This document shows, piece after piece, positions 1 to 47,554 of a DNA stretch of 64,000 nt. Numbering within the stretch: the first letter of the stretch is position 1; every line of letters begins with the position of its first letter. The notes under the pieces were generated by a model. It was given only the letters and a program-made list of their open reading frames with translations. It did not search any database and was not told the origin of the DNA. The stretch is from positions 1-64,000 of the forward strand of contig NZ_JASCXX010000018.1 in the NCBI RefSeq assembly GCF_030012215.1. Direction: 5' to 3'. The position numbers were made by a program, and so were the translations under genes. Source of the stretch: Anaerobaca lacustris. Lineage in GTDB: Bacteria > Planctomycetota > Phycisphaerae > Sedimentisphaerales > Anaerobacaceae.

Positions 1-166
1 GAGACCTCGTTATGGTGACTGGAGCCGACTCGTACGTAGACTACTGGCGCCCCGCAGGGGTGACGCCGAATAGATGTTTGGAATTCCCGCGAAGAAATCC
101 CGCGACCGTCTTGACAACGCCTTGCTCATAGATGTCCCCCGATTTCATTTCGTATGCTAATACGCC

Positions 167-952
167 TTATTCGACAATTAGCGGGAAATTCGGGGCAACC
201 CTCTTCTCAATACGACCCGCATAGGGAATGGCAACTCCAGTGATTTCCATCCGTAGGACCTTTTCGCCGGTCAGGGCCTGATAGCTGTAGTCGATGCGCA
301 CACGCCCCTCACCATATGGGTCTATGTTGAGAAGATCAAACTCCACTAGAGCCCGTCGCACACTCAACCCTCTGAAATAGAGCTTCTGTATGTCCGGGTG
401 AAGGTACCGGGCGTCAAGATCGAACTTGTCTGCCACTTCAAAGATGCTGCGAATCAGCGCAGGCAAATCGTGGTCATAGAAGCCTACCTCGACAGCTACG
501 CGCCCGACTGTCTTCTCGACCCTTGTATCGGCGGCAGCGTAGAAGAACCGTGGTGTTACAGGAAGACTCGTCCGTAAGGACTCTATCTGCTCACCACCCG
601 GACTTAGGCATATGTAAGTTCCTGCCGCCGGAGGTGTGCGCCATACCACATCCGAAGGGATATCCAATCGCTTTCTTATGAGAAGAGTCTGCATGTCACA
701 CGCCAGGAATACTTCAAATGGTACAGAACTTATCTCGCTACAAACCCATATGTCATGATCGGAGCTATTGCTTATCTTGTAGACCACGTCCAGGAAGGAG
801 TCAGTCATCTCCAGCTTAGTAAGCTCTATTGTCACGCCTGTCTCCTTGCCAATATCCAGAGCATCTGTCTCGGGGTCATGCTCCACATCAGAGTCCATAC
901 TGCACACACAGCAGAGGCACATTACCGCCATGATTCTCATCGCAGCACTCAT
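167..952 (-). CDS. Unknown exported protein, 261 aa
   Basis: Not recognised. The N-terminus has a short hydrophobic, Cys-rich stretch (MRIMAVMCLCCVC) followed by an acidic segment, consistent with an export signal or lipoprotein-like anchor. The remainder alternates beta-strand-like segments (VVYKISNSSDHDIWVC, VRIDYSYQALTGEK) and looks like a beta-rich extracytoplasmic domain. The start at 952 has an AAAGG about 8 nt upstream; an in-frame ATG at 940 is an alternative. It lies 155 bp downstream of another exported unknown on the same strand, and both lie downstream of the orphan RHS tip. Base composition is more AT-rich than in most of the window, suggesting later acquisition. A role as partner of the RHS tip is possible, but only position supports it. 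Confidence 0.6.
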   Translation of the reverse strand: MSAAMRIMAVMCLCCVCSMDSDVEHDPETDALDIGKETGVTIELTKLEMTDSFLDVVYKISNSSDHDIWVCSEISSVPFEVFLACDMQTLLIRKRLDIPSDVVWRTPPAAGTYICLSPGGEQIESLRTSLPVTPRFFYAAADTRVEKTVGRVAVEVGFYDHDLPALIRSIFEVADKFDLDARYLHPDIQKLYFRGLSVRRALVEFDLLNIDPYGEGRVRIDYSYQALTGEKVLRMEITGVAIPYAGRIEKRVAPNFPLIVE

Positions 953-1107
953 TGCTCATGCCTTTCATTGCTTTGTGGACCTTGCCACTCGCGGTCTTTC
1001 ATTGGTCTTTATTGGGGACAGTCATCTCTGGTTCCTGTTAGAGGTGGACCGAAAGACACGTCGGACGCATCTCGTCCACTCGTCCTGCGAACAGAAGCTG
1101 TTGCGGT

Positions 1108-2172
1108 TCAGTCCACGGAAAACACAGCTGTAACCGGGATATTCGTCAGAACAAACGGGATCTTGACTTCCACGGGATGAACGGCCAGGACGTGGCGTAT
1201 CCTGTCGAATACATACTCGCACTGCGAGAGAGTACCCACGCAGTTTGCTCCCCTTCCCGCATCGCTAATCACGGACTGGCCGAGGGAGGTAGATGCCACT
1301 TGTGCCTCGGAATCGAACAGCTGCGTCTTGATCACCACGTACTCCACCGAAGCGCGAACACTGGGAGAATACCATGAATCTGCCAGACCCATAACCGGGG
1401 TGCCTGTCTTCGACTTAACCCATGTTGTGTATTTGTACATCTGTATCGGTGCCGTTGGTCTGCGTATACTTGTCCCAGGTTGGCTCGTAGGGAGGGACTC
1501 GTACTCAATCGGACTGTCGGGCCGGGGCGGTGTCGTGGGGTCCACGGAGATCATCAGCCCGGGATGCTGCTCTGACTCGACCCAACCATTCGGCTCAAAT
1601 GGAATATCCACCTCAATCGTACGATCCGCATACAGAGCCCAGATGTAGCCCTCAATCGATACCACCGCAGGGGGGACAACCTGGCTGGTTCCGAGCGGCA
1701 ACTCAAGGGAGAAGCCCGGCGGCATCATCTGCCGCAGAAAGGTATATGCCTCCTGTATCCCCTGGATGCTCACCCTGGCGTAGCGACGCACATGGCTTGG
1801 TTCGGCACCCTGCCACGCCACGGGCGCGCCGCATGCGTCAATCACCGAGAAGACCACAGGACTGTCCACGGCCACAGCCATGAGGTCGTTGACATCCGGC
1901 ATGTCGAATCTTACTGAAACCCGAATCGATGGCACGATCTCGCCCCGCGTGAGATCGCAGCCGACGGGAGTCACCACACTGAAAGAGACTCCCCCAGAAT
2001 CCACCACGAAATTGAACCGCTGTGCCAAGTCCCAACGTAGGTCGTTCGGCTCCGCACCCGCCTGATATGTAGGTCCTGCGATCGATTCAACACTGCAGGC
2101 CAACACGACAGTCAACACCGCGCCATGCGCGATCACAGACAACCACCGCCAAATTGTCGTTGCAGGTTCCAT
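1108..2172 (-). CDS. Unknown exported protein, likely lipoprotein, 354 aa
   Basis: Not recognised. I chose the ATG at 2172 because GGAGGA lies 8 nt upstream; the frame stays open to 2220. From this start the protein begins MEPATTIWRW and has a hydrophobic run ending VVLACS, which fits a signal peptide with a lipobox (Cys about residue 26). The rest is beta-rich, with a Pro/Ser/Thr-rich linker near residues 225-245 (PTTPPRPDSP, LPTSQPGTSI). It is probably an envelope or periplasmic protein. It lies between the RHS tip and another exported unknown on the same strand and shares their lower GC. No catalytic motif is visible. Confidence 0.6.
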   Translation of the reverse strand: MEPATTIWRWLSVIAHGAVLTVVLACSVESIAGPTYQAGAEPNDLRWDLAQRFNFVVDSGGVSFSVVTPVGCDLTRGEIVPSIRVSVRFDMPDVNDLMAVAVDSPVVFSVIDACGAPVAWQGAEPSHVRRYARVSIQGIQEAYTFLRQMMPPGFSLELPLGTSQVVPPAVVSIEGYIWALYADRTIEVDIPFEPNGWVESEQHPGLMISVDPTTPPRPDSPIEYESLPTSQPGTSIRRPTAPIQMYKYTTWVKSKTGTPVMGLADSWYSPSVRASVEYVVIKTQLFDSEAQVASTSLGQSVISDAGRGANCVGTLSQCEYVFDRIRHVLAVHPVEVKIPFVLTNIPVTAVFSVD

Positions 2173-2481
2173 AAGCTCTTCCTCCACTGGTTGTTTCCGC
2201 ATCTCTGACATACAGATCACAGTCCAACGGCCCTGACACCGCTCAAAAGGCCAACGCTATACGCCCCTTCGATACTATATGATATTTGGTGTGCCGGGTC
2301 GATCTGGGTGCTGACAGGCAACCAGTCGTCGACCGCCCAGGCATGGCACCGCTCTGGAACAATAACAACTCAGTCACTATAATCAAAGCTCGCGACAAGT
2401 GGATTCTCTCTCAAGCCGCGGCCCTTAATCCTCATACAGCCGTGTTCACAGAAGTGCCACCTTTGCTGTCTCATCTCTCCA
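2173..2481. other. Intergenic, AT-rich, no gene seen
   Basis: This is a 309-bp gap between two minus-strand genes. It is noticeably AT-rich around 2265-2290 and 2365-2400, which would suit a promoter for the downstream minus-strand gene. I cannot assign -10 and -35 boxes with confidence. There is no RNA gene or clear hairpin. Confidence 0.4.
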
Positions 2482-4170
2482 CTAATAACCCACGTAATCT
2501 ATATAGTACTGGGTCTCCTGTCCAGGAGTCGCAACAACGTATCGTTCGTCTGGAACAAGGTCAGGTGGATTCCGCATCCCGGCTCCGTAGTAATCAGGTC
2601 CGGGTGGTTCACCGTACTCGTACCCAGGAAAATTGTCGATGATATGAGTGACTCTCCCCGTAAAGCCAGTCACCTGTAAGCCTGAGTGTGCAGCCATTAC
2701 CTCTGCATATATGCCTGCATTGCACTGCCTGAAATGAAGTGCCGTACCATCATAGTCCTGTGTCTCAGGATCATCCGGTCTCACTACACCTGCGACGGCC
2801 GCAACAAAACCTAGCAGAGAGCGATCCTCAGGGTATTCGTCTGTCGGCCCGTTCAGAGTATACCAAAAACCGCAGAGATCTATTCCCTCATCCACACATG
2901 GGTCGATGCCATGGCTGAAGAAATACACTTCCGTTACATCCTTCCCCATTTCCTTTAGATGTGCAAGGAACGCTACCATAAAGGACCCCGGATCGTCATA
3001 TCCGTAGCCTGCGTACTCACTCATACTGACTGAAATATCAAATGGCGGCTTATCATCAGCACACTTCCTGTAAATATTGCCATGGGTTGGGTGGGCACCA
3101 TCGTAAAACGCGACACAAAGCAGACCCGTTGGGTCAATCCACGTGATCGGGTTGTTCCGGCAGTAGGCGTACCAGTTCATGCCGTCTTGGTAGCCGATGG
3201 GGTCGGTTTGGAGGAAACGGCCGATGGTGGGGTTGTAGTAGCGGGCTCGGTAGTAGTAGAGTCCGGTTTCGGTGTCGAAACGTCGGCCGGTGAAGGCGAA
3301 GGGGTTGGGGTGGCCCGCGTCGGCGACGCCCGGCTGGCCGTAGACGTCGTATTCGTAGACCTGGACCGTCTCGCCGTCGGCGTCGCTCAGCGCCACCACC
3401 GAGCCGAGCGCATCGTAATGGTAGTAGTACGTCCCGGCATAACTGCCCGCCGCCTCGATCATGCAGATGGGTTCGTCGATGCACGGGCCATGGATGAACT
3501 TGCGCAGCAGGACGTCGTCGCCGTCGTACTCGGCGATGCACTGGGCGCCGTCGTAAACGTACTTGGTCACCACGCCATCGACGTCCTTGGCGATCCGCCG
3601 GCCGGCGGGGTCGTAGGTGTAGGTGATCTCTTCCCAGCCCGTCGAGGCGCCCCCGGCCCCCGGCGTCCACTGGAGGTAGTCCACCCACCCCCGGTCGGAC
3701 CCGTCCGCGGTTCGATTGTCCTTGATGTACTGCCACATCAGCGAGTGCGTTCCGGCCCCGCTGACGGTGTACGACTTCTGCGGCCAGTCGCACATGTTCC
3801 AGACGGTCCCGATGGTGTAGACGTTCAAATCGGTGTCCAGCCCATCCTGCAACTGGGTCGAATTGTACAGCGTCTGCGGCTGCCAGCGGACGTGGTCGAC
3901 CCACAGGCAGTCGTCGGCGTGGCTGCCGTGTTTGATCGGCCGGATTGTCGGGGGCGTTGTCCGCACGAAGTCCTCCCGTCGCAACACAGGCAGTCTATCG
4001 CCTTGCGATCCCTTTGTCAATGGGTTTTGGGCGAGCCGGGACGATGGGTTGCTAAACAGGGCGATTCGTGGGCTTCGGGAGGGGTTCGGTTTGACTTTTG
4101 TGGCGGCTGTGTTAAGATGAGGTGGGTTGGGTGGTCCGCGTTCCCGTTGGTTGTATGCGCCCAGGGGCAC
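2482..4170 (-). CDS. Orphan 5'-truncated RHS core with variable C-terminal domain
   Basis: This is the C-terminal end of an RHS/YD-repeat protein. Visible are YD repeats (GRRIAKDVDG, YEYDVYGQPG), the RHS-associated core (FDTETGLYYYRARYY, IGRFLQTDPIG) and its DPTGL terminus near residues 346-350. Just before the core is a lectin-like WVDYLQW segment common in secreted planctomycete proteins. The first 80 or so residues look non-coding, so real coding probably begins near 3950 and the large N-terminal RHS shell is missing. The 210-residue C-terminal domain has FFSHG (His420) and FRQCNAG (Cys483), a spacing and context reminiscent of clan CD or CHAT/DUF4347-type His-Cys peptidases; this is inference. 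DNA encoding this tip is more AT-rich than the core, as is usual for exchanged RHS tips. It may be a silent tip cassette rather than an expressed gene. Confidence 0.7.
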   Translation of the reverse strand: MPLGAYNQRERGPPNPPHLNTAATKVKPNPSRSPRIALFSNPSSRLAQNPLTKGSQGDRLPVLRREDFVRTTPPTIRPIKHGSHADDCLWVDHVRWQPQTLYNSTQLQDGLDTDLNVYTIGTVWNMCDWPQKSYTVSGAGTHSLMWQYIKDNRTADGSDRGWVDYLQWTPGAGGASTGWEEITYTYDPAGRRIAKDVDGVVTKYVYDGAQCIAEYDGDDVLLRKFIHGPCIDEPICMIEAAGSYAGTYYYHYDALGSVVALSDADGETVQVYEYDVYGQPGVADAGHPNPFAFTGRRFDTETGLYYYRARYYNPTIGRFLQTDPIGYQDGMNWYAYCRNNPITWIDPTGLLCVAFYDGAHPTHGNIYRKCADDKPPFDISVSMSEYAGYGYDDPGSFMVAFLAHLKEMGKDVTEVYFFSHGIDPCVDEGIDLCGFWYTLNGPTDEYPEDRSLLGFVAAVAGVVRPDDPETQDYDGTALHFRQCNAGIYAEVMAAHSGLQVTGFTGRVTHIIDNFPGYEYGEPPGPDYYGAGMRNPPDLVPDERYVVATPGQETQYYIDYVGY

Positions 4171-4257: not shown

Positions 4258-4740
4258 ATGGTGGATGGTGTTTCGGGACGTCATCGGGTGGTGATTGTGG
4301 TTGCCGCTGCGCGCGATGCGCTGGCGACGGAGACCGCCCGCCTGACGGCCGATTACGAGGTGGATGTCCGACGTTGCGACGACGTGTACGCGGCGACCGC
4401 AGAACTGGCGCTGTTGCGGGACCGTTGCGTGCTGGTGGTGGGCCGGCTTGGCGAGCTGGCGAAGGAGGACCGTCGCTTCTTCGCCATCGCGGTCCGCAGC
4501 GGCGCACGGTGTTGCGGCCTGCTGGACGTTGCGACGTCGGCCGAGCCGAATGTGGTCGCGGCGGCCATGCGCGCGGGCGTGCTCGTCGTCGGTGCGACAG
4601 ACGAGATCAAGGGTGTTTTCGACGTCTGGCTGGCCGGCGGTGGCTGCCCGTCGTCCCGGCCGGCGGTTTGCCTGGACGAGGAGTACCGCGCGACGGAGGC
4701 CGAGCTGAACGCATTGCTGGGGCAGGGAACCGATGAGTAG
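4258..4740 (+). CDS. Degenerate receiver-like protein, 160 aa
   Basis: Small alpha/beta protein with an N-terminal VVIVVAAARDA strand-turn and alternating hydrophobic strands (CVLVVGRLG, CGLLDVA, GVLVVGATDE), resembling a CheY-like receiver but without an identifiable phospho-acceptor Asp. The ATG at 4258 is preceded by GGGGAG at 4244-4249; a TTG at 4255 is less likely. Its stop overlaps the start of the downstream GGDEF gene by 8 bp, indicating translational coupling. It may be a regulatory or localisation partner of that cyclase. The function is inferred from fold resemblance and context only. Confidence 0.6.
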   Translation: MVDGVSGRHRVVIVVAAARDALATETARLTADYEVDVRRCDDVYAATAELALLRDRCVLVVGRLGELAKEDRRFFAIAVRSGARCCGLLDVATSAEPNVVAAAMRAGVLVVGATDEIKGVFDVWLAGGGCPSSRPAVCLDEEYRATEAELNALLGQGTDE

Positions 4741-5785
4741 CACGGCCGAATCGTCATCGCGGACACAGGGACGGGGCAAGGTCCTGCTGGTCGGCGACAT
4801 TCGCAAGGCGTTTCTCGACGCCGAGAGCGTGGGGCGCTACCCGTGCGATGTCAAGGCGAACCTGCTGGAGGCGATCGAGGCGGCGGCCGCGTGCGATTAC
4901 GACGCCGTCGGGGTGGTGATGAACGGCCTGCTGGGCCAACTGGGTCCGGTGTTGCGGGCCCTGCGCCGGGGGACGAAGGCGCCGATCGTCCTGCTGGCGC
5001 AGATGGTGGATGAGCCGATCGCCCGCCGGCTGGTTCAGAGCGAGCCGGGCGTCGGGAAGGCGGCCGATGCGTACCGCGTCTGTCCGACGACGCTGGCCGG
5101 CTTCGGGTCGGGCCTGGCCGCGGCGTCGGGGGCAGCGGCGTGGTCGCAGGGCGACGTCGTCCCGCCGGGCGTTGAGAAGCGGATGCGGTATCTCGAACGG
5201 CTGGCCACCACCGACGACCTGACGGGACTGAAGAACCGCCGGTACATTCGCGAGTTTGCCCGGCAGATCATCGAGCGGGCCCGGCACAGCGCCGGACGCG
5301 TCACGCTGCTGGTCTTCGATATCGACAACTTCAAGCACTACAACGACGTCTACGGCCACGCGACCGGCGACGAGATCCTCCGGCAGGCGGCCCTGCTGAT
5401 GCGCCGCTGCTGTCGGCCGCACGACGTGGTCGGCCGGATCGGCGGCGACGAGTTCGCCGTGGTGTTCTGGGACGACCCGCACGGCGGCGTGTCCGAGCCG
5501 CCAAGCGACAGACGCCATGCCGAGGCCGAGCACCCCAGCGAGCCGGTCTTCGTGGCCCGGCGCTTCCAGAATGAATTCGGCCACGCCGAACTGAACCTGC
5601 TGGGCCCCGAAGGGCAGGGCGTTCTGACGATCAGCGGGGCGCTGGTGCGATTCCCGCGCGACGGCCGGACCGTTCAGGAGCTTTTCGAGCGGGCCGACGC
5701 GGCTCTGCTCGATGCCAAACGCAGCGGGAAGAACCGCATTTACCTCGTGGGCGAGCCAAAAAGCAATATCGCCGACCTTCCTTAG
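4733..5785 (+). CDS. GGDEF diguanylate cyclase with degenerate N-terminal receiver-like domain
   Basis: 350 aa. Residues 15-140 form a receiver-like alpha/beta domain (KVLLVGDI, APIVLLAQ) without a clear phospho-Asp. Residues 150-345 form a GGDEF domain, with TTDDLTGLKNRR at the start, FDIDNFKHYND as the metal/substrate-binding strand, GGDEF intact at 237-241, and an RxxD inhibitory site (RPHD, 228-231) exactly five residues upstream. It should synthesise cyclic di-GMP in the cytoplasm and be subject to product inhibition. An insertion of about 35 residues follows GGDEF (DDPHGGVSEPPSD...), longer than usual. It is coupled to the preceding receiver-like gene. Confidence 0.88.
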   Translation: MSSTAESSSRTQGRGKVLLVGDIRKAFLDAESVGRYPCDVKANLLEAIEAAAACDYDAVGVVMNGLLGQLGPVLRALRRGTKAPIVLLAQMVDEPIARRLVQSEPGVGKAADAYRVCPTTLAGFGSGLAAASGAAAWSQGDVVPPGVEKRMRYLERLATTDDLTGLKNRRYIREFARQIIERARHSAGRVTLLVFDIDNFKHYNDVYGHATGDEILRQAALLMRRCCRPHDVVGRIGGDEFAVVFWDDPHGGVSEPPSDRRHAEAEHPSEPVFVARRFQNEFGHAELNLLGPEGQGVLTISGALVRFPRDGRTVQELFERADAALLDAKRSGKNRIYLVGEPKSNIADLP

Positions 5786-12472: not shown

Positions 12473-12492
12473 GGGCGAATCATGATTCGCCC
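12473..12492. repeat. Palindromic dispersed repeat, copy 1
   Basis: Perfect 20-bp palindrome with half-site GGGCGAATCA, placed between the convergent GH127 and GH29 genes and touching the GH29 stop. It belongs to the same family as the palindromes at 19845-19872 and 47527-47554. It can form a hairpin and could act as a bidirectional terminator or RNA-stabilising element, although it lacks a T-tract. Confidence 0.8.
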
Positions 12493-14781
12493 CTACGGGG
12501 TGTCGGCGGTGATCACGCCGAGTTCGGCGACGGACATCCACGGATTACCATCGACGGCGGAGAGGCCGACAAAGCGGACGAACTGTCCCTGCACCAGGCG
12601 CTCGAACCGCACCGTCTGCTCGACGGGGTTGTTCTTGATGTTGCCGAACGAGCCCTTCGCGGCCGGACGCCGCCACTGTGTGCCATCGCGAGAGACGTGG
12701 AATTCATAGTCCACGACGGTCCCGTTGCTCTGGCTGTCCTGGCGGGGCAGGTACGTGAAGCCCGTCAGCGTGTATGTCTTGCCCAGGTCGATCACGATCT
12801 CGTGCGGATGGCTCGGCGAGTCGCCCGACCACTGGGTGTGCCAGATCGTGCCGGGGTCGCCGTCGATGGCGTTGGCGGCCGTTTCGTTGGGCGGCTGCTC
12901 GCTCGATGCGCGAACGACCTTCCAGCCGGCCCGGGCAATATCGAATGTCGCGGTTACCACGCGTCCGGCCGTTTCACCCGTTGGGTCGATGGCGACGGCC
13001 TTGATCGTGCCGCCAAGCGGCAGGGGGATCGGGCTGGTGTAGATCGGTGACTGACTCGTGGGCGTGCCCCCGTCGGTCGTGTAGCGGATAACGGGGCCGG
13101 CCGGCTCGCAATAGATCGTGACGTTGCCCTGGCTGTCGCGGCTGAACTTCGGGTCGCTCAGTCGGACCGGTTCGAAGTAGACGCCCACGTTGCTGATCGT
13201 CGGGCAGATGCGGCTGTCCAGCACGCGGATGCGAATCTTGTCGCTGGTCACCGTTTGCGTGCGGCTGATCCGCTTGTAGCCGACCGTCTGCCCGTCGGCG
13301 ATCTGCTGCCACCGCCCATCCACCATCGCATCGACCGCAAACCTCGCGATCCGCTGGCCGAAGTCCTGAATCTGCTCCTGGAACATGACGCGGTTGAAGG
13401 TCTTGGCGCCCGCCAGCGTCATGACCAGTTCGGCCTGGGTCGTCCCTTCCGGCGGCATCCAGCAGGTGTCGAAATCGCCATCGATGGCTTTCGACGCCTC
13501 GAAACCGACGCCGCGCGTCGCCGAGGCGGCGGCCGTCGCGCCCTTGGCCAGATCGACGGCGAACGTCTGGCGGAGGATCTGGCCGACCTCTTCGAGCACC
13601 TTGCTGTCGCGCTCGGGAAAGAGCCCGTCGCGGTTGGGCGGGATGTTGAGCAAAAAGACCGTATTGCCGCCCACCGACCGGTACCAGATATCGAGGATCT
13701 CCTCGGTGCTTTTGACGAACTGCTGTTCGTCGCGCCAGAACCAGCCGTGACGGATCGAGGTGTTGGTCTCGGCCGGGTACCAGTGCAGCCAGCCGCCTTT
13801 GCCCGCCATCCGGGCGAGCCGGGCGGCGCTGCCCAGGTCGGTGTCGGTCATGTCGGGCCAGTCGAATTCGTCCGGCGAAACCGGCAGCGGGACTACGCTC
13901 CATTCGGCCTGACGCGTGCCGCCGGCCTCGTTGCCGCACCAGCGGACGTCGGGGCCCTTGCCGAAGATCACCGCTTCGGGCGCCAGCGTGCGGATCAGAT
14001 CGTACCACTGCGGGTGCGTGTAGGTCTGGCCGCCTTTGCGTTTGGGGTGGGCGCCGTCGAACCAGACCTCGTGGATCGGCCCGTACTCGGTCAGCAGCTC
14101 GAAGAGCTGGTTCATGAAGTACTCGTTGTAGTCGTCGGCGCGGAAGGTGAACGTCCGCTTGTCCGCGAAGGGCCGGCCCGGCACCGGACGCGGGATCGTC
14201 CGCTCGGTGTACTCGCTCAGGTTGCCATAGAGGCCGTCGGGATGCTCGATCTGGTACAGGTCAGCCGGGGAGAGGTAGACACCGACCTTCAGTCCGTACT
14301 TCTGGCACGACGTCACCAGGTCGCGCAGGACGTCGCCCTTGCCGTTGCGCCAGGGGCTCGACGCGACGGAATGGTCGGTATAGCGCGTCTGCCAGAGGCA
14401 GAACCCGTCGTGGTGTTTGACGGTGAGGATGACCATGCTCATGCCCGCCGCCTTCATCATCCGGCACCACTGGTCGGTGTCGAGATTGGTGGGATTGAAA
14501 ATCTTCGGATCTTCCATCCCCGTGCCCCACTCGCGGGCGGTGAACGTGTTGACGCCGAAGTGGACGAAGCAGATGTACTCGCACCGCTGCCATTCGAGCT
14601 GCGGCCGCGACGGAACCACGCGGGCGGCTTTCTCGACGATCTGCTGGGCCGTGTCCGTCGGCGAAACCGCCACCGAACTGCGATAGACCTCGTCCGCCAG
14701 GCCGCGGCACGCAGCGGTCAGGGCAATCAGGCAAACCAGAGAGGCGCTGAGATACGGTCGTGGCGAGGCAATGATCTTCAT
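12493..14781 (-). CDS. GH29 alpha-L-fucosidase with two F5/8-type domains
   Basis: 762 aa, signal peptide ending near AACRGLADE. Residues 55-410 are a GH29 TIM barrel: FVHFGVNTFTAREWG, VKHHDGFCLW, and the nucleophile Asp242 in EVWFDGAHP. C-terminal to it are a discoidin/F5-8-like domain (about 420-555), a chitobiase-like CHB_HEX segment (RYTTDGGTPTS), and a second F5-8 domain (about 640-760, IWHTQWSG). It should remove terminal alpha-L-fucose from extracellular glycans, with the add-on domains binding carbohydrate. AAAGGA precedes the start at 14781. Its start overlaps the end of the upstream PQQ-propeller gene by 4 bp, so the two are co-translated. Confidence 0.9.
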   Translation of the reverse strand: MKIIASPRPYLSASLVCLIALTAACRGLADEVYRSSVAVSPTDTAQQIVEKAARVVPSRPQLEWQRCEYICFVHFGVNTFTAREWGTGMEDPKIFNPTNLDTDQWCRMMKAAGMSMVILTVKHHDGFCLWQTRYTDHSVASSPWRNGKGDVLRDLVTSCQKYGLKVGVYLSPADLYQIEHPDGLYGNLSEYTERTIPRPVPGRPFADKRTFTFRADDYNEYFMNQLFELLTEYGPIHEVWFDGAHPKRKGGQTYTHPQWYDLIRTLAPEAVIFGKGPDVRWCGNEAGGTRQAEWSVVPLPVSPDEFDWPDMTDTDLGSAARLARMAGKGGWLHWYPAETNTSIRHGWFWRDEQQFVKSTEEILDIWYRSVGGNTVFLLNIPPNRDGLFPERDSKVLEEVGQILRQTFAVDLAKGATAAASATRGVGFEASKAIDGDFDTCWMPPEGTTQAELVMTLAGAKTFNRVMFQEQIQDFGQRIARFAVDAMVDGRWQQIADGQTVGYKRISRTQTVTSDKIRIRVLDSRICPTISNVGVYFEPVRLSDPKFSRDSQGNVTIYCEPAGPVIRYTTDGGTPTSQSPIYTSPIPLPLGGTIKAVAIDPTGETAGRVVTATFDIARAGWKVVRASSEQPPNETAANAIDGDPGTIWHTQWSGDSPSHPHEIVIDLGKTYTLTGFTYLPRQDSQSNGTVVDYEFHVSRDGTQWRRPAAKGSFGNIKNNPVEQTVRFERLVQGQFVRFVGLSAVDGNPWMSVAELGVITADTP

Positions 14782-18271: not shown

Positions 18272-18376
18272 GTAGGGCGAACGTCCCATTCGACGTTGCT
18301 CAGAGCCCGCCCTGAACCCGGCTGAAGGGGCAGGCTCTCGTTCGCCTTGATCGTCGTGCGAGGACGCACGACCTAC
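18272..18376 (+). repeat. MITE-like element, copy 1 (105 bp)
   Basis: Bounded by related inverted ends GTAGGGCGAACGTCC (18272-18286) and GGACGCACGACCTAC (18362-18376). It contains a 57-bp core (18282-18338) that recurs exactly, in inverse orientation, at 22911-22967. It has no coding capacity. It lies immediately upstream of the first Gfo/Idh/MocA gene. The paired copies bracket three such genes. Confidence 0.75.
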
Positions 18377-18432
18377 AACACGGCATCGGACGGATACACG
18401 GCAAACACGAAAGAAGTAGGAGAAAACCCGCC

Positions 18433-19830
18433 ATGAGCGAAGCCACAAGCAACACCACATCGCGTCGCGAATTTCTGAAGAACACGGGCCGGGTCGCTGC
18501 GGCTTCGGCCCTGGCGACGGGGATCAGTTCGAGCCTGTACGCCGGGAGCGACAACACGATCCGTCTGGCGCTGGTCGGCTGCGGCGGGCGAGGCACGGGC
18601 GCGGCCGTCGACGCCATGAACGTCCGAGGCCAGGGCCCGATCAAGCTCGTGGCCATGGCCGACGCCTTCGAGGACCGCCTGACCAGCAGCTACAAGAACC
18701 TCAAAGCCAGTCATGCCAACCAGGTGGACGTGCCGGACGACCGCAAATTCGTCGGTTTCGACGCCTACAAGAAGGCGATGGATTGCCTGCGTCCGGGTGA
18801 CGTGGCGATCTTCGGGACGCCGCCGGCCTTCCGCTGGGTGCACTTCGACTACGCCGTCCAGAAGGGCCTGCACGTCTTCATGGAAAAGCCCGTCACCGTG
18901 GACGGTCCGACGACGAAGCGGATGATCGAGCTGTCGAAGAAGGCCGACGCCAAGAACCTCAAGGTTGGCGTGGGCCTGATGTCGCGTCACAGCCGGGCGC
19001 TCCAGGAACTGGCCAATCGCGTCCACGACGGCGAGATCGGCGACATCATCCTGATGCGCGGCTACCGCATGCACGGGCCGGTGGGCTTCTTCGCCTCGCC
19101 GCCCAAGCCGGACAACATCAGCGACCTGCTCTATCAGGTGCGACGATTCCACAGCTTCATCTGGGCCAGCGGCGGCAACTACAGCGACTTCTACATCCAC
19201 GTGATCGATCATCTGTGCTGGATGAAGGGCTCCTGGCCGGTGAAGGTCCAGGCCCTCGGCGGTCGCCACTACAAGGAAAGTCCCGAAGGCGTCCGATACG
19301 TGGACCAGAATTTCGACACCTACGCAGTCGAGTACACCTTCGCCGACGGCACCAAGATGGATTTCGACGGGCGCTGCATGGACGGCGCGACCCAGATCTA
19401 CTCCAGCTACCTGCACGGCACGAAGGGCTCGGCGATTGCCTCCAAGAGCGGCGACTGCGGGCTGCCGTCGAGCACGTACCGGGGCCAGTCGCCCGACGAC
19501 GACAAGCTGATCTGGCAGTCGAGGATTCCAAGGGCACAGCAGAATCCGTATCAGAACGAATGGGACGACCTGATCGATGCGATCCGCAACGACAAGCCCT
19601 ACAACGAGGCCGAGCGCGGCGCGATCGGCAGTATGGTGACGTCGATGGGCCGCATGGCCGCCCACACGGGCGTGGAGATCACCTACGATCAGATGCTCAA
19701 CTGCCCGCACGAGCTGGCGCCGGGTCTGGACAAGCTGACCTGGGATTCGCCGGCCCCGCTGAAGGCCGACGCCCAGGGCCGATACCCGGTCCCGCAGCCC
19801 GGCATTGTCACCGACCGCGAATATGCATAG
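18433..19830 (+). CDS. Tat-exported Gfo/Idh/MocA family oxidoreductase 1
   Basis: 465 aa. Twin-arginine signal SRREFLKNTG then a hydrophobic AAASALATGISSSLYA. A Rossmann NAD(P)-binding domain follows (LALVGCGGRGTGAA), then MEKPVTVDGPT containing the family's EKP motif, and the C-terminal alpha/beta dimerisation domain (NEWDDLIDAIRNDKPYNEAERG). Expected to act outside the cytoplasm, probably on a sugar or sugar derivative with a tightly bound nicotinamide cofactor; the substrate cannot be told from sequence. TAGGAG precedes the ATG at 18433. The leader and protein are very similar to the next gene, so tandem duplication is likely. Confidence 0.88.
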   Translation: MSEATSNTTSRREFLKNTGRVAAASALATGISSSLYAGSDNTIRLALVGCGGRGTGAAVDAMNVRGQGPIKLVAMADAFEDRLTSSYKNLKASHANQVDVPDDRKFVGFDAYKKAMDCLRPGDVAIFGTPPAFRWVHFDYAVQKGLHVFMEKPVTVDGPTTKRMIELSKKADAKNLKVGVGLMSRHSRALQELANRVHDGEIGDIILMRGYRMHGPVGFFASPPKPDNISDLLYQVRRFHSFIWASGGNYSDFYIHVIDHLCWMKGSWPVKVQALGGRHYKESPEGVRYVDQNFDTYAVEYTFADGTKMDFDGRCMDGATQIYSSYLHGTKGSAIASKSGDCGLPSSTYRGQSPDDDKLIWQSRIPRAQQNPYQNEWDDLIDAIRNDKPYNEAERGAIGSMVTSMGRMAAHTGVEITYDQMLNCPHELAPGLDKLTWDSPAPLKADAQGRYPVPQPGIVTDREYA

Positions 19831-19844
19831 TCTGTACAACGGTG

Positions 19845-19872
19845 GTAGGGGCGAATCATGATTCGCCCCTAC
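19845..19872. repeat. 28-bp perfect palindrome, copy 2
   Basis: Half-site GTAGGGGCGAATCA followed directly by its reverse complement, located 15 bp after the stop of the first Gfo/Idh/MocA gene. Same family as 12473-12492 and 47527-47554. Likely forms a strong hairpin in the transcript. Confidence 0.85.
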
Positions 19873-19998
19873 GCGCCGGTTTACGGGGGGCATAGATGGA
19901 GGAGGGCAATGGGGTGGTTCGCCGCATCATGTCGGCATTTCCACGAAACGACCGCAGTACAAGCCGTAACGCACCAGTGAAGTAGGAGAAGATCCGTC

Positions 19999-21375
19999 AT
20001 GAGTCAAACCGCAAGCGAACAGACATCACGTCGCGAATTCCTGAAGAACACCGGCCGGATCGCCGCGGCCTCCACCCTCGTCGCCGGGCTCGGTTCGAGC
20101 CTTTATGCGGCCGGCAGCGACACGATCCACGTGGCCCTGATCGGCTGCGGCGGTCGCGGCACCGGCGCCGCCCAGAACGCCCTGTCGGTCCCGAACGGGC
20201 GGACCAAGCTCATAGCCCTGGCCGACGTCTTCGCCGACCGCGTGGACCGCAGCTTCAAGGGGCTCCAGGAGAGGCACGCCGCTCAGATGGACGTGCCGGA
20301 CGACCGCAAGTTCGTCGGCTTCGACGCCTACAAGAAAGCGATGGATTGTCTGCGTCCGGGCGACGTCGCGATCTCGGCGACCCCGCCGGCGTTCCGCGAG
20401 GTGCACCTGACCTATGCCATCCAGAAGGGCGTCCACCTCTTCATGGAGAAGCCTGTGACCGTCGACGGCCCGACCACCAAGCGGATGCTTGTGCTGGCCA
20501 AAGAGGCCGACAAGAAGAACCTCAAGATCGGTGTGGGTCTGATGGTCCGACACTGTCGGGGCCGCCAGGAGTTGAAGAAGCGAATCGACGCCGGCGAGAT
20601 CGGCGACATCCACACGATTCGGGCCTACCGCATGGGCGGACGAGCGGCCACTCTCGGCCCCAACACGAGCAACATCAGCGACCTGCTCTATCAGATTCGC
20701 CGATTCCACAGCTTCCTCTGGTCCAGCGGCGGGCTCTTCAGCGATTACTACATCCACCAGATCGACGAGTGCTCGTGGATGAAGGGCGCCTGGCCGGTCG
20801 AGGCCCGCGCCATCGGCGCTCGCCACTATCGCGGCAACTCCGTCGATCAGAACCTCGACAACTACTCGGTCGAATACACCTTTGCCGACGGAACCAAGTT
20901 CTTCTATGGCGGCCGTCACATGGACGGCTGCGAGAACGCGTTCAACAGCTTCGTGCATGGCACGAAGGGCTCGGCGGTCGTCTCGACCTCGGCCCACACC
21001 CCCGGCCGCGTCCGCACCTACCGCGATCAGAACATGGCCCGCGAGAATCTGATCTGGAACTTCCCGCAGCCCGAGCCGAGCCCCTACCAGCTCGAATGGG
21101 ACGATCTGATCGACGCCATCCGCCGCGACGAACCGTTCAACGAGACCGAGCGCGGCGCGATCGCCAGCATGGTTACGTCGATGGGCCGCATGGCCGCCCA
21201 CACCGGCAACGTCATCACCTACGATCAGATGCTCAACTGCCCGCACGAGTTTGCTCCGAACGTGGCCAAGTTCACGATGGATTCGCCGGCGCCGCTCAAG
21301 GCCGACTCGGAAGGGAAGTATCCGGTGCCGCAGCCGGGTGTTCTGAAGGATCGCGAGTATCAGGAGTTTGCATAG
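19999..21375 (+). CDS. Tat-exported Gfo/Idh/MocA family oxidoreductase 2
   Basis: 458 aa, close paralog of the preceding oxidoreductase. Twin-arginine signal SRREFLKNTGRIAAAST, Rossmann motif LIGCGGRGTGAA, FMEKPVTVDGPTTKRM, and the same C-terminal MVTSMGRMAAHTGNVITYDQML block. The ribosome-binding leader (GTAGGAGAAGATCC) is also nearly the same as that of copy 1. Differences cluster around the middle (KESPEGVRY missing), suggesting divergence in the substrate pocket. A strong terminator follows at 21397-21440, so this gene probably ends a transcript. Confidence 0.88.
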   Translation: MSQTASEQTSRREFLKNTGRIAAASTLVAGLGSSLYAAGSDTIHVALIGCGGRGTGAAQNALSVPNGRTKLIALADVFADRVDRSFKGLQERHAAQMDVPDDRKFVGFDAYKKAMDCLRPGDVAISATPPAFREVHLTYAIQKGVHLFMEKPVTVDGPTTKRMLVLAKEADKKNLKIGVGLMVRHCRGRQELKKRIDAGEIGDIHTIRAYRMGGRAATLGPNTSNISDLLYQIRRFHSFLWSSGGLFSDYYIHQIDECSWMKGAWPVEARAIGARHYRGNSVDQNLDNYSVEYTFADGTKFFYGGRHMDGCENAFNSFVHGTKGSAVVSTSAHTPGRVRTYRDQNMARENLIWNFPQPEPSPYQLEWDDLIDAIRRDEPFNETERGAIASMVTSMGRMAAHTGNVITYDQMLNCPHEFAPNVAKFTMDSPAPLKADSEGKYPVPQPGVLKDREYQEFA

Positions 21376-21396
21376 CTCATGTCATTGCAGGCAATT

Positions 21397-21440
21397 CGCC
21401 GCCGGCCTCGAATCGTCCGAGGTCGGCGGCGTCTTCTTTC
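21397..21440 (+). terminator. Rho-independent terminator
   Basis: A 14-bp GC-rich stem (CGCCGCCGGCCTCG with CGAGGTCGGCGGCG, one G-T wobble) and a 7-nt loop, followed by TCTTCTTT. It lies 21 bp after the stop of oxidoreductase 2 and upstream of oxidoreductase 3. Confidence 0.75.
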
Positions 21441-21472
21441 CATATCTTCGGCCGCTTTCAAAAGGAGTCACC

Positions 21473-22855
21473 ATGAAGAGCCCAGCGCAGTCACATGGCT
21501 TGACATCGTTGCAGACAGAGAATAAGCGGTCCTCCCGTCGGCAGTTTCTGGCCGAGAGCTCGCGGGTCGTCGCCGGCTCGGTGCTGGGCGGCGCTGCCCT
21601 GTCGCGGGCTTATGCGGGTGAGGACAACACGATCCGGCTGGCCCTGATCGGCTGCGGCGGACGCGGCAGTGGGGCGGCCGCCAATGCCCTCAGTTCGCAG
21701 ACCGGCCCGACGAAGCTCGTCGCAATGGCCGATGTGTTCGAAGACCGCCTGACGCGGTCGCACAAGGCCCTGCGTGAGCAGTTTGGCGAGCGGGTTGACG
21801 CCCCGGAGGACCGGTGTTTCGTCGGCTTCGGCGCCTACCGTAAGGCCATTGATTGTCTGCGACCCGGCGACGTGATGATCCAGGCCACCCATGCGGCCTT
21901 CCGCCCGACGCATGTGGCCTACGCCGTGGAGAAGGGGGTCAACGTCTTCATGGAGAAGTCCTTCGCTCCCGATCCGGGCGGCACACACGAAATTCTTCGT
22001 CTGGGGGCCGAGGCCGAGAAGAAGAACCTCAAGATCGGTTGCGGACTGATGTGCCGTCATTCCTCGGCGCGGCAGGCGCTGATCGAGAAGATCCGCGACG
22101 GCGCGATGGGCGAGATCACGCTGATCCGCGCCTACCGGATGGACCCCGGCGCCCGGCTGGGCCCGTTCAAGGGTGGCGAAAACGAGCTGCTCTGGCAGCT
22201 TCGGCGTCCGTACTTCTTCCTGTGGACCTCGTCGGCGTGGTTCATCGAGATGATGATCCATCAGGTGGACGAGTGCTGCTGGATCAAGGATGCCTGGCCG
22301 GTCTCGGCCGAGGGGCTGGGCGGGTGCGAGCCGCGAAGCAACGATTGCAGCCAGAACGTCCACACCTACGCCATCGAGTACACCTTCCCCGACGGGACCA
22401 AGGCGTTCGTCAACAGCCGTAACCAGCAGCATTGCCGCAACGAGTTTGCCACCTTCGCACACGGGACGAAATGCGCCGCCCAGTTCTCCGGCAACGTCCA
22501 TGCCCCGACGGTGCAGATCTACAAGAACCAGCGGATCGCCCGCGACAACATCGCTTGGCGACCGGAAAACGAGAAGGTCAGCCCATACCAGGCCGAATGG
22601 GATACGCTGCTCGACGCAATCCGCCGGGACAAGCCACACAACGAGGTCAAACGGGCCGCCTATACCAATCTGGCCTCCATTATGGGACGGGCCGCCATTC
22701 ATACGGGCCAGGTCATCACCTGGGACCAGATGATGGCGTCGAATTTCAAGTTCTGCGAGAATGTCAACTTCACCATCGACAGTCCTGCGCCGGTGCGGGC
22801 CGACGCCGAAGGCCGCTATCCGGTCCCGATCCCCGGCCAGTGGTCGGAGATCTGA
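21473..22855 (+). CDS. Tat-exported Gfo/Idh/MocA family oxidoreductase 3
   Basis: 460 aa. The ATG at 21473 has AAGGAG at 21462-21467, so I prefer it to the open frame start at 21368, which overlaps the previous gene. Twin-arginine motif SSRRQFLAESSRV, Rossmann LIGCGGRGSGAAANAL. The usual EKP is replaced by FMEKSFAPDPGG, i.e. EKS. The conserved Lys is kept but the following Pro is lost. It is more diverged from copies 1 and 2 than they are from each other. Probably a periplasmic sugar-modifying oxidoreductase of different specificity. Confidence 0.86.
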   Translation: MKSPAQSHGLTSLQTENKRSSRRQFLAESSRVVAGSVLGGAALSRAYAGEDNTIRLALIGCGGRGSGAAANALSSQTGPTKLVAMADVFEDRLTRSHKALREQFGERVDAPEDRCFVGFGAYRKAIDCLRPGDVMIQATHAAFRPTHVAYAVEKGVNVFMEKSFAPDPGGTHEILRLGAEAEKKNLKIGCGLMCRHSSARQALIEKIRDGAMGEITLIRAYRMDPGARLGPFKGGENELLWQLRRPYFFLWTSSAWFIEMMIHQVDECCWIKDAWPVSAEGLGGCEPRSNDCSQNVHTYAIEYTFPDGTKAFVNSRNQQHCRNEFATFAHGTKCAAQFSGNVHAPTVQIYKNQRIARDNIAWRPENEKVSPYQAEWDTLLDAIRRDKPHNEVKRAAYTNLASIMGRAAIHTGQVITWDQMMASNFKFCENVNFTIDSPAPVRADAEGRYPVPIPGQWSEI

Positions 22856-22870
22856 CAGGCGGACGGCCTC

Positions 22871-22977
22871 GTAGGGCGAGCGTCCTCGCTCGTCTTGGGG
22901 GCGTCGTGCAAGAGCCTGCCCCTTCAGCCGGGTTCAGGGCGGGCTCTGAGCAACGTCGAATGGGACGCACGACCTAC
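22871..22977 (-). repeat. MITE-like element, copy 2 (107 bp)
   Basis: Ends GTAGGGCGAGCGTCC (22871-22885) and GGACGCACGACCTAC (22963-22977). Its 57-bp core (22911-22967) is the exact reverse complement of 18282-18338. It lies 15 bp after the stop of oxidoreductase 3. With copy 1 it forms inverted flanks around the three oxidoreductase genes. No target duplication is obvious. Confidence 0.75.
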
Positions 22978-23100: not shown

Positions 23101-24417
23101 ATGATGGCACGCTCGAATGAATCCGACAGGAGTTTGGGCACCACGCGGCGTGATTTTCTCAAGGCCTCGACCGCACTGACTTCGGCGGCGGTCGCTGGGA
23201 CGCTCGGGGCGCGGGTCTTTGCCGGCGGCAGCGATGTCCTTCGGGTAGGGATGGTCGGCTGCGGCGGCCGTTGCGCCGGTGCGGCGGCCGAGGCGCTGAC
23301 GGCCGATCCCGGGGCGCGCCTCGTCGCGATGTGCGACGTCTTCATGGACCGCGTTAAGGACAAACGGCGCATCCTGAAGGAGCAGAAGGGCGATCAGGTG
23401 ATGGTCGACGACGACCACTGCTTCGTCGGCTTCGACGGCTATAAGCACGTGATCGAATCGTCCGACGTGGTGCTCATCGCCAATGCCGCCAAGTTCCATC
23501 CGCTCCAGGCCATGACGGCGGTTCAGGCGGGCAAGCACGTGTTCGTCGAGAAGCCCCACGGGATCGACCCGGCCGGCGTCAAGCTCATGGCCGCGGCGGC
23601 GAAGCTGGCCAAAGAGAAAGGCCTCTGCTTCGTTTCGGGCCTGCACAGCCGCTACGACACGCGCTACGCCGAGACAGTGCAGCGGATTCACGACGGTGCG
23701 ATCGGCGAGGTGATCTCCATCGAGGAGAACTTCCTTCGCGGCCCGTACGGCATCATCGACCGCAAGCCGGGCCTGACGGAACTCCAGTGGCAGTGCAGCA
23801 CGCAGTATCACTTCCGCTGGCTCTCCGGCGACGACGTGCCGCAGTCGCTCGTGCACAACCTCGATCGCTCCCGCTGGGTCCTGCGCGAGGAGAACCCCAC
23901 CAAGTGCCACGGCCTGGGCGGACGGTCGTCGATGACCGAGCCGATCTATGGCGACGTGTTCGACCACCATTCGGTGATCTACGAGTTTGCCAGCGGCGTC
24001 CGCATTTACGCCTTCTGCCGCACGACGACCGGCTGCCACAACGACTCGTCCAGCGTCGTGCTGGGCAGCAAAGGCAAGGCCGACATCACGAACTACCGTA
24101 TCTGGGGCGAGACGAACTGGCGATCGACGGCCCGCTGCAACCCCTATCAGAGGGAGCACGACGTGCTTTTCGCCGCCATCCGCTCGGGCAATCCCATCAA
24201 CAACGGCGATTACATGGTCCCCAGCACAATGGTTACGGTCATGGGGCAAATTTCCTGCTACACGGGCAAGGAGGTGACGTGGGAGCAGATCAATCAATCG
24301 GACTTCTACTACCCGCCTCGGCCGGAGGACTGTCGTGACGATATGGGCCCGCCCAGCAAGGCCGGTCCCGATGGCAGCTATCCGGTGCCCAAGCCGGGTT
24401 TCACACAGATGATATGA
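23101..24417 (+). CDS. Tat-exported Gfo/Idh/MocA family oxidoreductase 4
   Basis: 438 aa. GAAGGAG lies just upstream of tandem ATGs at 23101 and 23104. Twin-arginine signal TTRRDFLKAST, Rossmann VGMVGCGGRCAGAA, FVEKPHGIDPAG (EKPH, as in many dehydrogenases of this family), C-terminal QREHDVLFAAIRSGNPINNG. It is clearly a different subgroup from copies 1-3 and lies outside the inverted repeat pair. Followed after 76 bp by the SUMF1-fold and GH5-like genes on the same strand. Substrate unknown. Confidence 0.88.
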   Translation: MMARSNESDRSLGTTRRDFLKASTALTSAAVAGTLGARVFAGGSDVLRVGMVGCGGRCAGAAAEALTADPGARLVAMCDVFMDRVKDKRRILKEQKGDQVMVDDDHCFVGFDGYKHVIESSDVVLIANAAKFHPLQAMTAVQAGKHVFVEKPHGIDPAGVKLMAAAAKLAKEKGLCFVSGLHSRYDTRYAETVQRIHDGAIGEVISIEENFLRGPYGIIDRKPGLTELQWQCSTQYHFRWLSGDDVPQSLVHNLDRSRWVLREENPTKCHGLGGRSSMTEPIYGDVFDHHSVIYEFASGVRIYAFCRTTTGCHNDSSSVVLGSKGKADITNYRIWGETNWRSTARCNPYQREHDVLFAAIRSGNPINNGDYMVPSTMVTVMGQISCYTGKEVTWEQINQSDFYYPPRPEDCRDDMGPPSKAGPDGSYPVPKPGFTQMI

Positions 24418-45908: not shown

Positions 45909-45953
45909 TTCGTGGCGTAGGGCGAGCGTCCCCGCTCGCCTGTCGTGCGCTAC

Positions 45954-47526: not shown

Positions 47527-47554
47527 GTAAGGGCGAATAATGATTCGCCCCTAC
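47527..47554. repeat. 28-bp palindrome, copy 3 (imperfect)
   Basis: GTAAGGGCGAATAA followed by TGATTCGCCCCTAC; same family as 19845-19872 with two base changes in the left half. It begins 6 bp after the esterase stop and precedes the convergent PspC gene. Confidence 0.8.

What the first reader, a model, noticed from the sequence alone, without database searches (positions are those of the whole stretch)
18272..22977. Inverted MITE-like pair brackets three Gfo/Idh/MocA genes
Elements at 18272-18376 and 22871-22977 have similar 15-bp ends (GTAGGxCGxxCGTCC type) and an identical 57-bp core in opposite orientation. They lie directly before the first and directly after the third oxidoreductase gene. 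Exact identity over 57 bp in non-coding DNA implies recent spread or gene conversion. The arrangement could mobilise or invert the three-gene block.
Basis: seen in the sequence. Interest (0 to 1): 0.55.

Follow-up and report, generated by a model that had tools for sequence, protein, structure and literature searches.

The report
Paired REP repeats with loop inserts
The two matching elements are small dispersed DNA repeats of a known kind that recur dozens of times in this bacterium and very likely flank the three genes by chance, but each carries a second short repeat set inside the loop of a hairpin, which points to an odd way for tiny repeats to spread.

Summary
The elements are real and at the stated places. 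Each is a head-to-head pair of two GTAG-tagged hairpins (REPIN/BIME type), one of about 60 such places in this planctomycete genome. The shared 57-bp core is mostly a 51-nt insert in the loop of one hairpin: the C-type hairpin in E1, the T-type in E2. The insert reads as a 26-nt unit (P) holding an inverted 25-nt copy of itself. Three congeners carry the same genes in the same order with no inversion. All three lack E1; at the E2 site one has a plain REPIN with a 4-nt loop and two have decayed hairpin remnants, none with the core. So the core probably entered a hairpin already there. Two more with/without pairs show the same kind of difference. A fourth oxidoreductase gene lies just past E2 and a third GTAG palindrome lies inside the block, so the bracketing is most likely coincidental. 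In one congener a REP-associated tyrosine transposase gene has such REPINs on both sides; none was seen beside them here. The identical cores fit recent local copying. Mobilisation or inversion of the block has no support. Known class of repeat; the recurrent insert is a new variant.

The parts
18272..18376 (+). E1: composite REPIN/BIME, C-REP (with loop insert) head to head with T-REP
18276..18283 (+). E1 C-REP 5' arm GGCGAACG, pairs with 18339-18346
   Evidence: sequence; fold
18287..18337 (+). E1 loop insert, 51 nt (most of the 57-bp core), read as outer P unit with inverted P nested inside
   Evidence: boundaries set by eye
18303..18327 (-). inverted 25-nt P copy inside the E1 insert
   Evidence: 0 of 2000 shuffles reach the score
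18339..18346 (+). E1 C-REP 3' arm CGTTCGCC
   Evidence: sequence
18353..18376 (-). E1 T-REP: hairpin 18353-18372 (plain 4-nt loop) plus GTAG tag
   Evidence: sequence
22871..22977 (-). E2: composite REPIN/BIME, T-REP (with loop insert) head to head with C-REP
22871..22894 (+). E2 C-REP with plain loop TCCT
   Evidence: sequence
22912..22962 (-). E2 loop insert, 51 nt, identical to that of E1
   Evidence: absent at this site in G001, G002, G005
22922..22946 (+). inverted 25-nt P copy inside the E2 insert
22966..22977 (-). E2 T-REP 5' arm and GTAG tag; 3' arm at 22903-22910 (one mismatch)
   Evidence: sequence
19845..19872 (.). third GTAG...CTAC palindrome, inside the block between genes 1 and 2; also present at this spot in G005 and, varied, in G002
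18433..19830 (+). Gfo/Idh/MocA gene 1
   Evidence: Pfam
19999..21375 (+). Gfo/Idh/MocA gene 2
   Evidence: Pfam
21473..22855 (+). Gfo/Idh/MocA gene 3 (scanned as the longer frame 21368-22855 it had no Pfam match at 0.001; 51% identical to gene 2)
23101..24417 (+). Gfo/Idh/MocA gene 4, outside the bracket

Best explanation
E1 and E2 are two members of a dispersed family of GTAG-type REP doublets (REPIN/BIME), each a head-to-head pair of a C-type hairpin (GTAGGGCGAGCG-TCCY-CGCTCGCC) and a T-type hairpin (GTAGGTCGTGCG-TCCY-CGCACGAC). Their shared core is a 51-nt insert in the tetraloop of one of the hairpins. It reads as a recurring 24-26-nt unit P (C(N)TTCGACNNNGCTCAGGGCAGGCTC) that holds a second, inverted P. 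Shown: family size, anatomy, collinearity with congeners, absence of E1 in three congeners, and at the E2 site a plain or decayed T-REP without the core in those three. Inferred: the REPINs were spread by a RAYT transposase acting on single-stranded hairpins; P was copied into REP loops by template switching or loop conversion at the TCC microhomology; and one of the two sites gave its core to the other because they lie close together. The bracketing of three genes is coincidental.
For: 59 exact half-REP sites in the genome, 1 for the reversed control; a covariance model of the 50-57-nt pair gives 88 hits at E<=1, which are 63 distinct places on 26 contigs, 59 at E<=0.001 (the tool scored 150 of 7460 candidates, so a lower bound). 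Three congeners collinear across the locus (the outer left flank is anchored by only 41-50 bp). Site 1 empty in 3 of 3; site 2: REPIN with loop AGGA in G002 (also a model hit, G002:C28:9757-9812), T-REP remnants without the core in G001 and G005. Second with/without pair: G005:C20 has 24 nt more in the T-REP loop than own C16:60954 (AGGA), 91% identical over a 3036-column alignment. Third: own C7:45040 has P in the C-REP loop, G004:C467 a plain loop TCCT, flanks 73% identical. P in a REP loop with both arms present at 9 of 67 own places by my reading plus a decayed tenth at C40 (L081), in both hairpin types, after the TCC or GCC of the loop and in one orientation. Inner 25-26 nt of long P resembles inverted P in 9 of 9 hand-picked cases (8 distinct sequences). 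RAYT gene with these REPINs on both sides in congener G004, NCBIfam REP_Tyr_transpos 83.2 bits, cut-off 80.
Against: No RAYT beside a C/T-REP was found in the window's own genome: of its three Y1 matches, L031 passes the Pfam cut-off but scores 62 bits in NCBIfam, below the cut-off of 80; none of the three fetched stretches holds a C/T-REP, though L031 and L033 run into contig ends. Y1 transposases occur in 53 of 61 genomes, own included, REPINs at E<=1e-6 in 9 of 61, so presence does not track. P alone forms no hairpin (z +1.06), and the short P-loaded L009 piece folds no better than shuffles (z 0.05), so a hairpin-recognising enzyme would not obviously move it. E2 and the plain pair L027 have one long hairpin, not two, as their best fold. 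P is not confined to loops: it also follows TTGTCC in the linker at four own places (L005, L006, L065, L077) and lies in other contexts. Polarity (gain rather than loss of P) is parsimony at the E2 site only, and no tree was made. At four other own loop-insert sites tried, no clean with/without pair was obtained. REPINs here cluster more than random (16 pairs within 4.7 kb, 3.7 expected, 0 of 2000 simulations reach it), so proximity of two elements is not special in itself.
Confidence: 0.85

Rival explanations
1. A MITE pair (remnant of a DDE-type insertion sequence) forming a composite unit that can move or invert the three-gene block.
For: Two similar elements in opposite orientation with an identical core flank the genes.
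Against: Dozens of copies elsewhere; no target duplication beside E1 or E2 by eye; gene order and orientation same in 3 of 3 congeners, none of which has E1 or the core; a fourth paralogue lies outside.
Confidence: 0.04
2. The loop insert is ancestral and plain loops arose by repeated precise deletion.
For: Long palindromes are deletion-prone (recalled). Polarity of the G005:C20 and own C7 pairs rests on two genomes each.
Against: At the E2 site three congeners lack the core, which by protein identity (93, 93, 87%; no tree made) would need at least two losses; by my reasoning a slipped deletion between the short direct repeats at the insert ends would not leave the standard tetraloop.
Confidence: 0.15
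3. P is moved by a Y1/RAYT transposase as a site-specific single-stranded insertion at NCC^Y, not by template switching or conversion.
For: Near-constant ends and target in C-REP loops, T-REP loops, the linker and P itself; no target duplication seen; one orientation relative to the GTAG of C- and T-REPs.
Against: P has no hairpin of its own; Y1 genes do not track the repeats; conversion from another loaded T-REP explains identical boundaries equally well; beside GTAGTG-type REPs P has the opposite orientation.
Confidence: 0.25
4. E1 and E2 are retained as transcription terminators or mRNA-stabilising hairpins of the oxidoreductase genes.
For: E2 lies 15 bp after a stop codon; as single-stranded DNA, E1, E2 and a plain pair fold better than shuffles (z -3.5, -2.5, -6.8; RNA parameters not run).
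Against: E1 lies before a start codon; E1 and the core are absent in congeners that keep the genes.
Confidence: 0.1

Closest known systems
REPIN (REP doublet forming hairpins; PMC3116915, passages seen)
   Same: Two inverted REPs, short spacer, dispersed, arm changes kept complementary, doublet as unit
   Different: 50-57-nt heterodimer of two hairpin types; some carry a 24-51-nt insert in one loop
GTAG-tagged REP families and HH dimers (PMC3733652, parts 1-2 of 8 and passages seen)
   Same: GTAG end, 8-bp stem, short loop, HH heterodimers, reported in Planctomycetes; it also reports structured inner loops up to 27 bp in Bradyrhizobium, and REP dimers set inside other palindromes in some species
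   Different: Its table gives loops of 2-20 bp and units with unusual loops were discarded; here loops reach 55 nt with one recurring insert shared by two hairpin types
Insertion sequences that target REPs (IS1397, ISKpn1, IS621; PMC1525189, passages seen)
   Same: REP serves as insertion target
   Different: Insert here is 24-51 nt, non-coding, no target duplication seen
REP-associated tyrosine transposase (RAYT, NF047646)
   Same: RAYT gene with these REPINs on both sides in congener G004
   Different: No such neighbour seen in the window's own genome

Membership tests
GTAG-type REP / REPIN | GTAG end at the foot of a short stem-loop | tested here: met
   E1 fold
GTAG-type REP / REPIN | inverted (head-to-head) doublet with short spacer | tested here: met
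GTAG-type REP / REPIN | dispersed, tens of copies or more | tested here: met
GTAG-type REP / REPIN | variable arms kept complementary | tested here: met
   GAGCG/CGCTC, GAACG/CGTTC, GTGCG/CGCAC arms by eye; no formal covariation test
GTAG-type REP / REPIN | RAYT gene flanked by the same REPs | tested here: inconclusive
   met in congener G004:C230; not seen in own genome, two of its three Y1 stretches cut by contig ends
GTAG-type REP / REPIN | extragenic location genome-wide | not tested
   E1 and E2 are intergenic; the other places were not scored against gene calls
MITE | terminal inverted repeats matching a transposase-bearing element | tested here: inconclusive
   ends are halves of two hairpins; only Y1 transposases were searched, no DDE family
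MITE | target-site duplication | tested here: not met
   E1 and E2 flanks by eye
Invertible DNA segment | both orientations seen among relatives | tested here: not met
   3 of 3 congeners in one orientation

The most novel reading that the evidence does not exclude
P is a mobile unit of only 24-26 nt, without structure of its own, that is inserted with near-fixed ends at NCC^Y, often in the loops of hairpin repeats and inside copies of itself, building nested repeats step by step.
Probability: 0.25. Interest if true: 0.7.

Novelty: new variant of a known kind. Interest (0 to 1): 0.4.

Why it matters
How REPs spread and why they are mosaic is unsettled. Orthologous loci with and without a loop insert give a directly testable step: a defined short sequence enters a defined 4-nt loop. 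It also warns that two similar elements around a gene block need not be a transposon.

Tried and rejected
Composite transposon or invertible block: rejected on collinearity in three congeners. Own Y1 protein L031 as the cognate RAYT: not supported; L033 is a fragment at a contig end, L032 lies inside a valyl-tRNA synthetase frame. Presence of Y1 genes as a predictor of REPINs: failed. With/without pairs at own C34:12706, C10:46152, C16:107259, C19:85839: no clean pair (G002 lacks the whole element at C34; the others rearranged or one-sided; the C19 hits were not pursued). P as a hairpin element: fold test negative. G005:C6 versus own C2:83883: both hold P in the same T-REP but with quite different P sequences; G002, G003 and G004 show no such element there. 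Keeping of the host's fourth loop base: fits E1 and the G005:C20 pair but is not informative for T-type REPs in general. Literature: text searches for two stretches of P found no paper; topic searches listed no paper on loop inserts that I recognised, but I read only listings and passages, in an open-access library.

Full report
Observation. E1 (18272-18376) and E2 (22871-22977) are as described: inverted arms of 67 nt, 96% complementary, 57 nt identical. They lie 56 bp before gene 1 and 15 bp after gene 3.

What they are. Searching the window's own genome (G000, 5.73 Mb, 117 contigs) with E1 gave 40 matches at E<=0.01, with 40 of 66 candidates scored; the half-element GTAGGNCGNNCGTCC gave 59 exact sites, 1 for the reversed control. 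Fifteen simple copies align as a 50-57-nt unit of two hairpins head to head: GTAG-GGCGAGCG-TCCC-CGCTCGCC, a short linker, GTCGTGCG-GGGA-CGCACGAC-CTAC. A covariance model of this gave 88 hits at E<=1, which merge into 63 places on 26 contigs (59 at E<=0.001, 42 at E<=1e-6). With four more places from BLAST and the pattern I read 67 places; a few hold only P or a chance half-site. This is the anatomy of GTAG-REP head-to-head dimers (PMC3733652, parts 1-2 of 8 and passages seen) and REPINs (PMC3116915, passages seen). Among 61 genomes (own plus 60 relatives) the model rings at E<=1e-6 in 9, with stricter filters: own 52 hits, G004 39, G029 48, six others 3-7, both-strand duplicates included.

The core. 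In E1 the C-type arms GGCGAACG/CGTTCGCC enclose TCC + 51 nt + T; in E2 the same 51 nt sit between the T-type arms GTCGTGCG/TGCACGAC. So the core is a loop insert, housed in different hairpins in the two elements. By my reading, 9 of 67 places carry such an insert between two arms (E1, E2, L003, L004, L008, L009, L011, L057, L077; L003 has arms of two types and L077 a different middle part); a decayed tenth is at C40 (L081). L005 and L007 keep only one arm. P is not confined to loops: it follows TTGTCC in the linker at L005, L006, L065 and L077, and lies in other repeats. A narrower pattern for loop inserts found 6 in this genome, 2 in G005 and 1 in G003, 3 of 61 genomes, with one control match in G005. 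Short forms hold a 24-26-nt unit P; long forms hold P with 25-26 nt more in its middle, which resemble P inverted (9 of 9 hand-picked cases, 8 distinct sequences, 0 of 2000 shuffles each reaching the score; the E1/E2 match is the weakest). Copies L120 and L118/L113 show the short and long P in one and the same outer context. P alone has no hairpin. Of 65 plain own hairpins read, all 6 of the GAACG type have loop TCCT, and E1 keeps the T; T-type TCGTGCG hairpins have 14 TCCC, 5 TCCT, 1 GCCC, 1 GCCT, so there the point is not informative.

Before and after. The gene block was found in three congeners (G001:C385, G005:C41, G002:C28), same order and orientation (left outer flank anchored by 41-50 bp only). 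These contigs have the lengths of public records JAAYBA010000478.1, LVBB01000041.1 and JAAYBV010000054.1, titled Planctomycetota, Phycisphaerales and Phycisphaerae MAGs. E1 is absent in 3 of 3. At the E2 site G002 has a partly decayed REPIN with loop AGGA and G001/G005 a decayed T-REP; none has the core. At G005:C20 a 24-nt P sits in a T-REP loop where own C16:60954 has AGGA. At own C7:45040 P sits in a C-REP loop where G004:C467 has TCCT. Four other own sites gave no clean pair. At G005:C6 and own C2:83883 both hold P but of different sequence.

Why the bracketing is coincidental. Many copies exist; a fourth paralogue follows E2; a third GTAG palindrome lies between genes 1 and 2; and the places cluster in this genome, 16 pairs within 4.7 kb against 3.7 expected at random (67 places, including the few P-only or chance ones; contig ends ignored). 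For one pre-chosen pair, lying within 4.7 kb has probability 0.0016 if places were random, which clustering weakens; it favours local copying between the sites.

Agent. In congener G004 a Y1 transposase gene (match C230:4105-4341) has REPINs at 3734-3791 and 3816-3917 on one side and 4724-4781 on the other; its protein scores 83.2 bits for NCBIfam REP_Tyr_transpos (cut-off 80). In the own genome three Y1 matches were found, none beside a C/T-REP in the stretch held. Y1 genes occur in 53 of 61 genomes, so they do not track the REPINs. Thus RAYT spread of the REPINs is likely but inferred; how P enters loops is open. Template switching or conversion at TCC is my first choice, an enzymatic insertion the second.

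Verdict. Known kind of repeat, new variant with recurrent nested loop inserts.

Noticed in passing
L266 (G000:C13:125500-130500), frame 3-3254 minus; L032: A valyl-tRNA synthetase reading frame holds an in-frame RAYT domain (177-aa core, MPNHVH motif), in what I recall as the CP1/editing region (Pfam tRNA-synt_1 spans it). The same arrangement is in 7 of 8 loci fetched (L266, L267, L268, L270-L273; the eighth, L269, is a Y1 domain in another long protein). Substitutions suggest purifying selection on the RAYT core (pN/pS 0.16-0.38, synonymous sites near saturation; ValS part 0.07-0.15). Paper searches: none with RAYT, valyl-tRNA synthetase and transposase; one with REP-associated tyrosine transposase and tRNA synthetase, PMC3733652, which mentions REPs inside tRNA synthetase genes of other bacteria.
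   Followed up: partly
L263 (G004:C230:2000-7000): RAYT gene with cognate REPINs on both sides in a congener.
   Followed up: partly
window 19845-19872, 12473-12496, 47546-47554; L018, L082: Further GTAG-tagged palindrome families (GTAGGGGCGAATCATGATTCGCCCCTAC; GTAGGATGGGCTT...AAGCCCATCCTAC) share the genome with the C/T-REPs.
   Followed up: no
L098, L106, L109 (G002), L100 (G001), L010 (own): P also sits in or beside GTAGTG-type REP hairpins, after GCC and before T; L100 has a short and a long P in neighbouring repeats.
   Followed up: partly
L113, L118, L120 (G000 C2, C8, C10): A longer repeat with P in it, three copies with short or long P in the same outer context.
   Followed up: partly
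window 45917-45940: C-REP with only a remnant of its T-REP partner.
   Followed up: no
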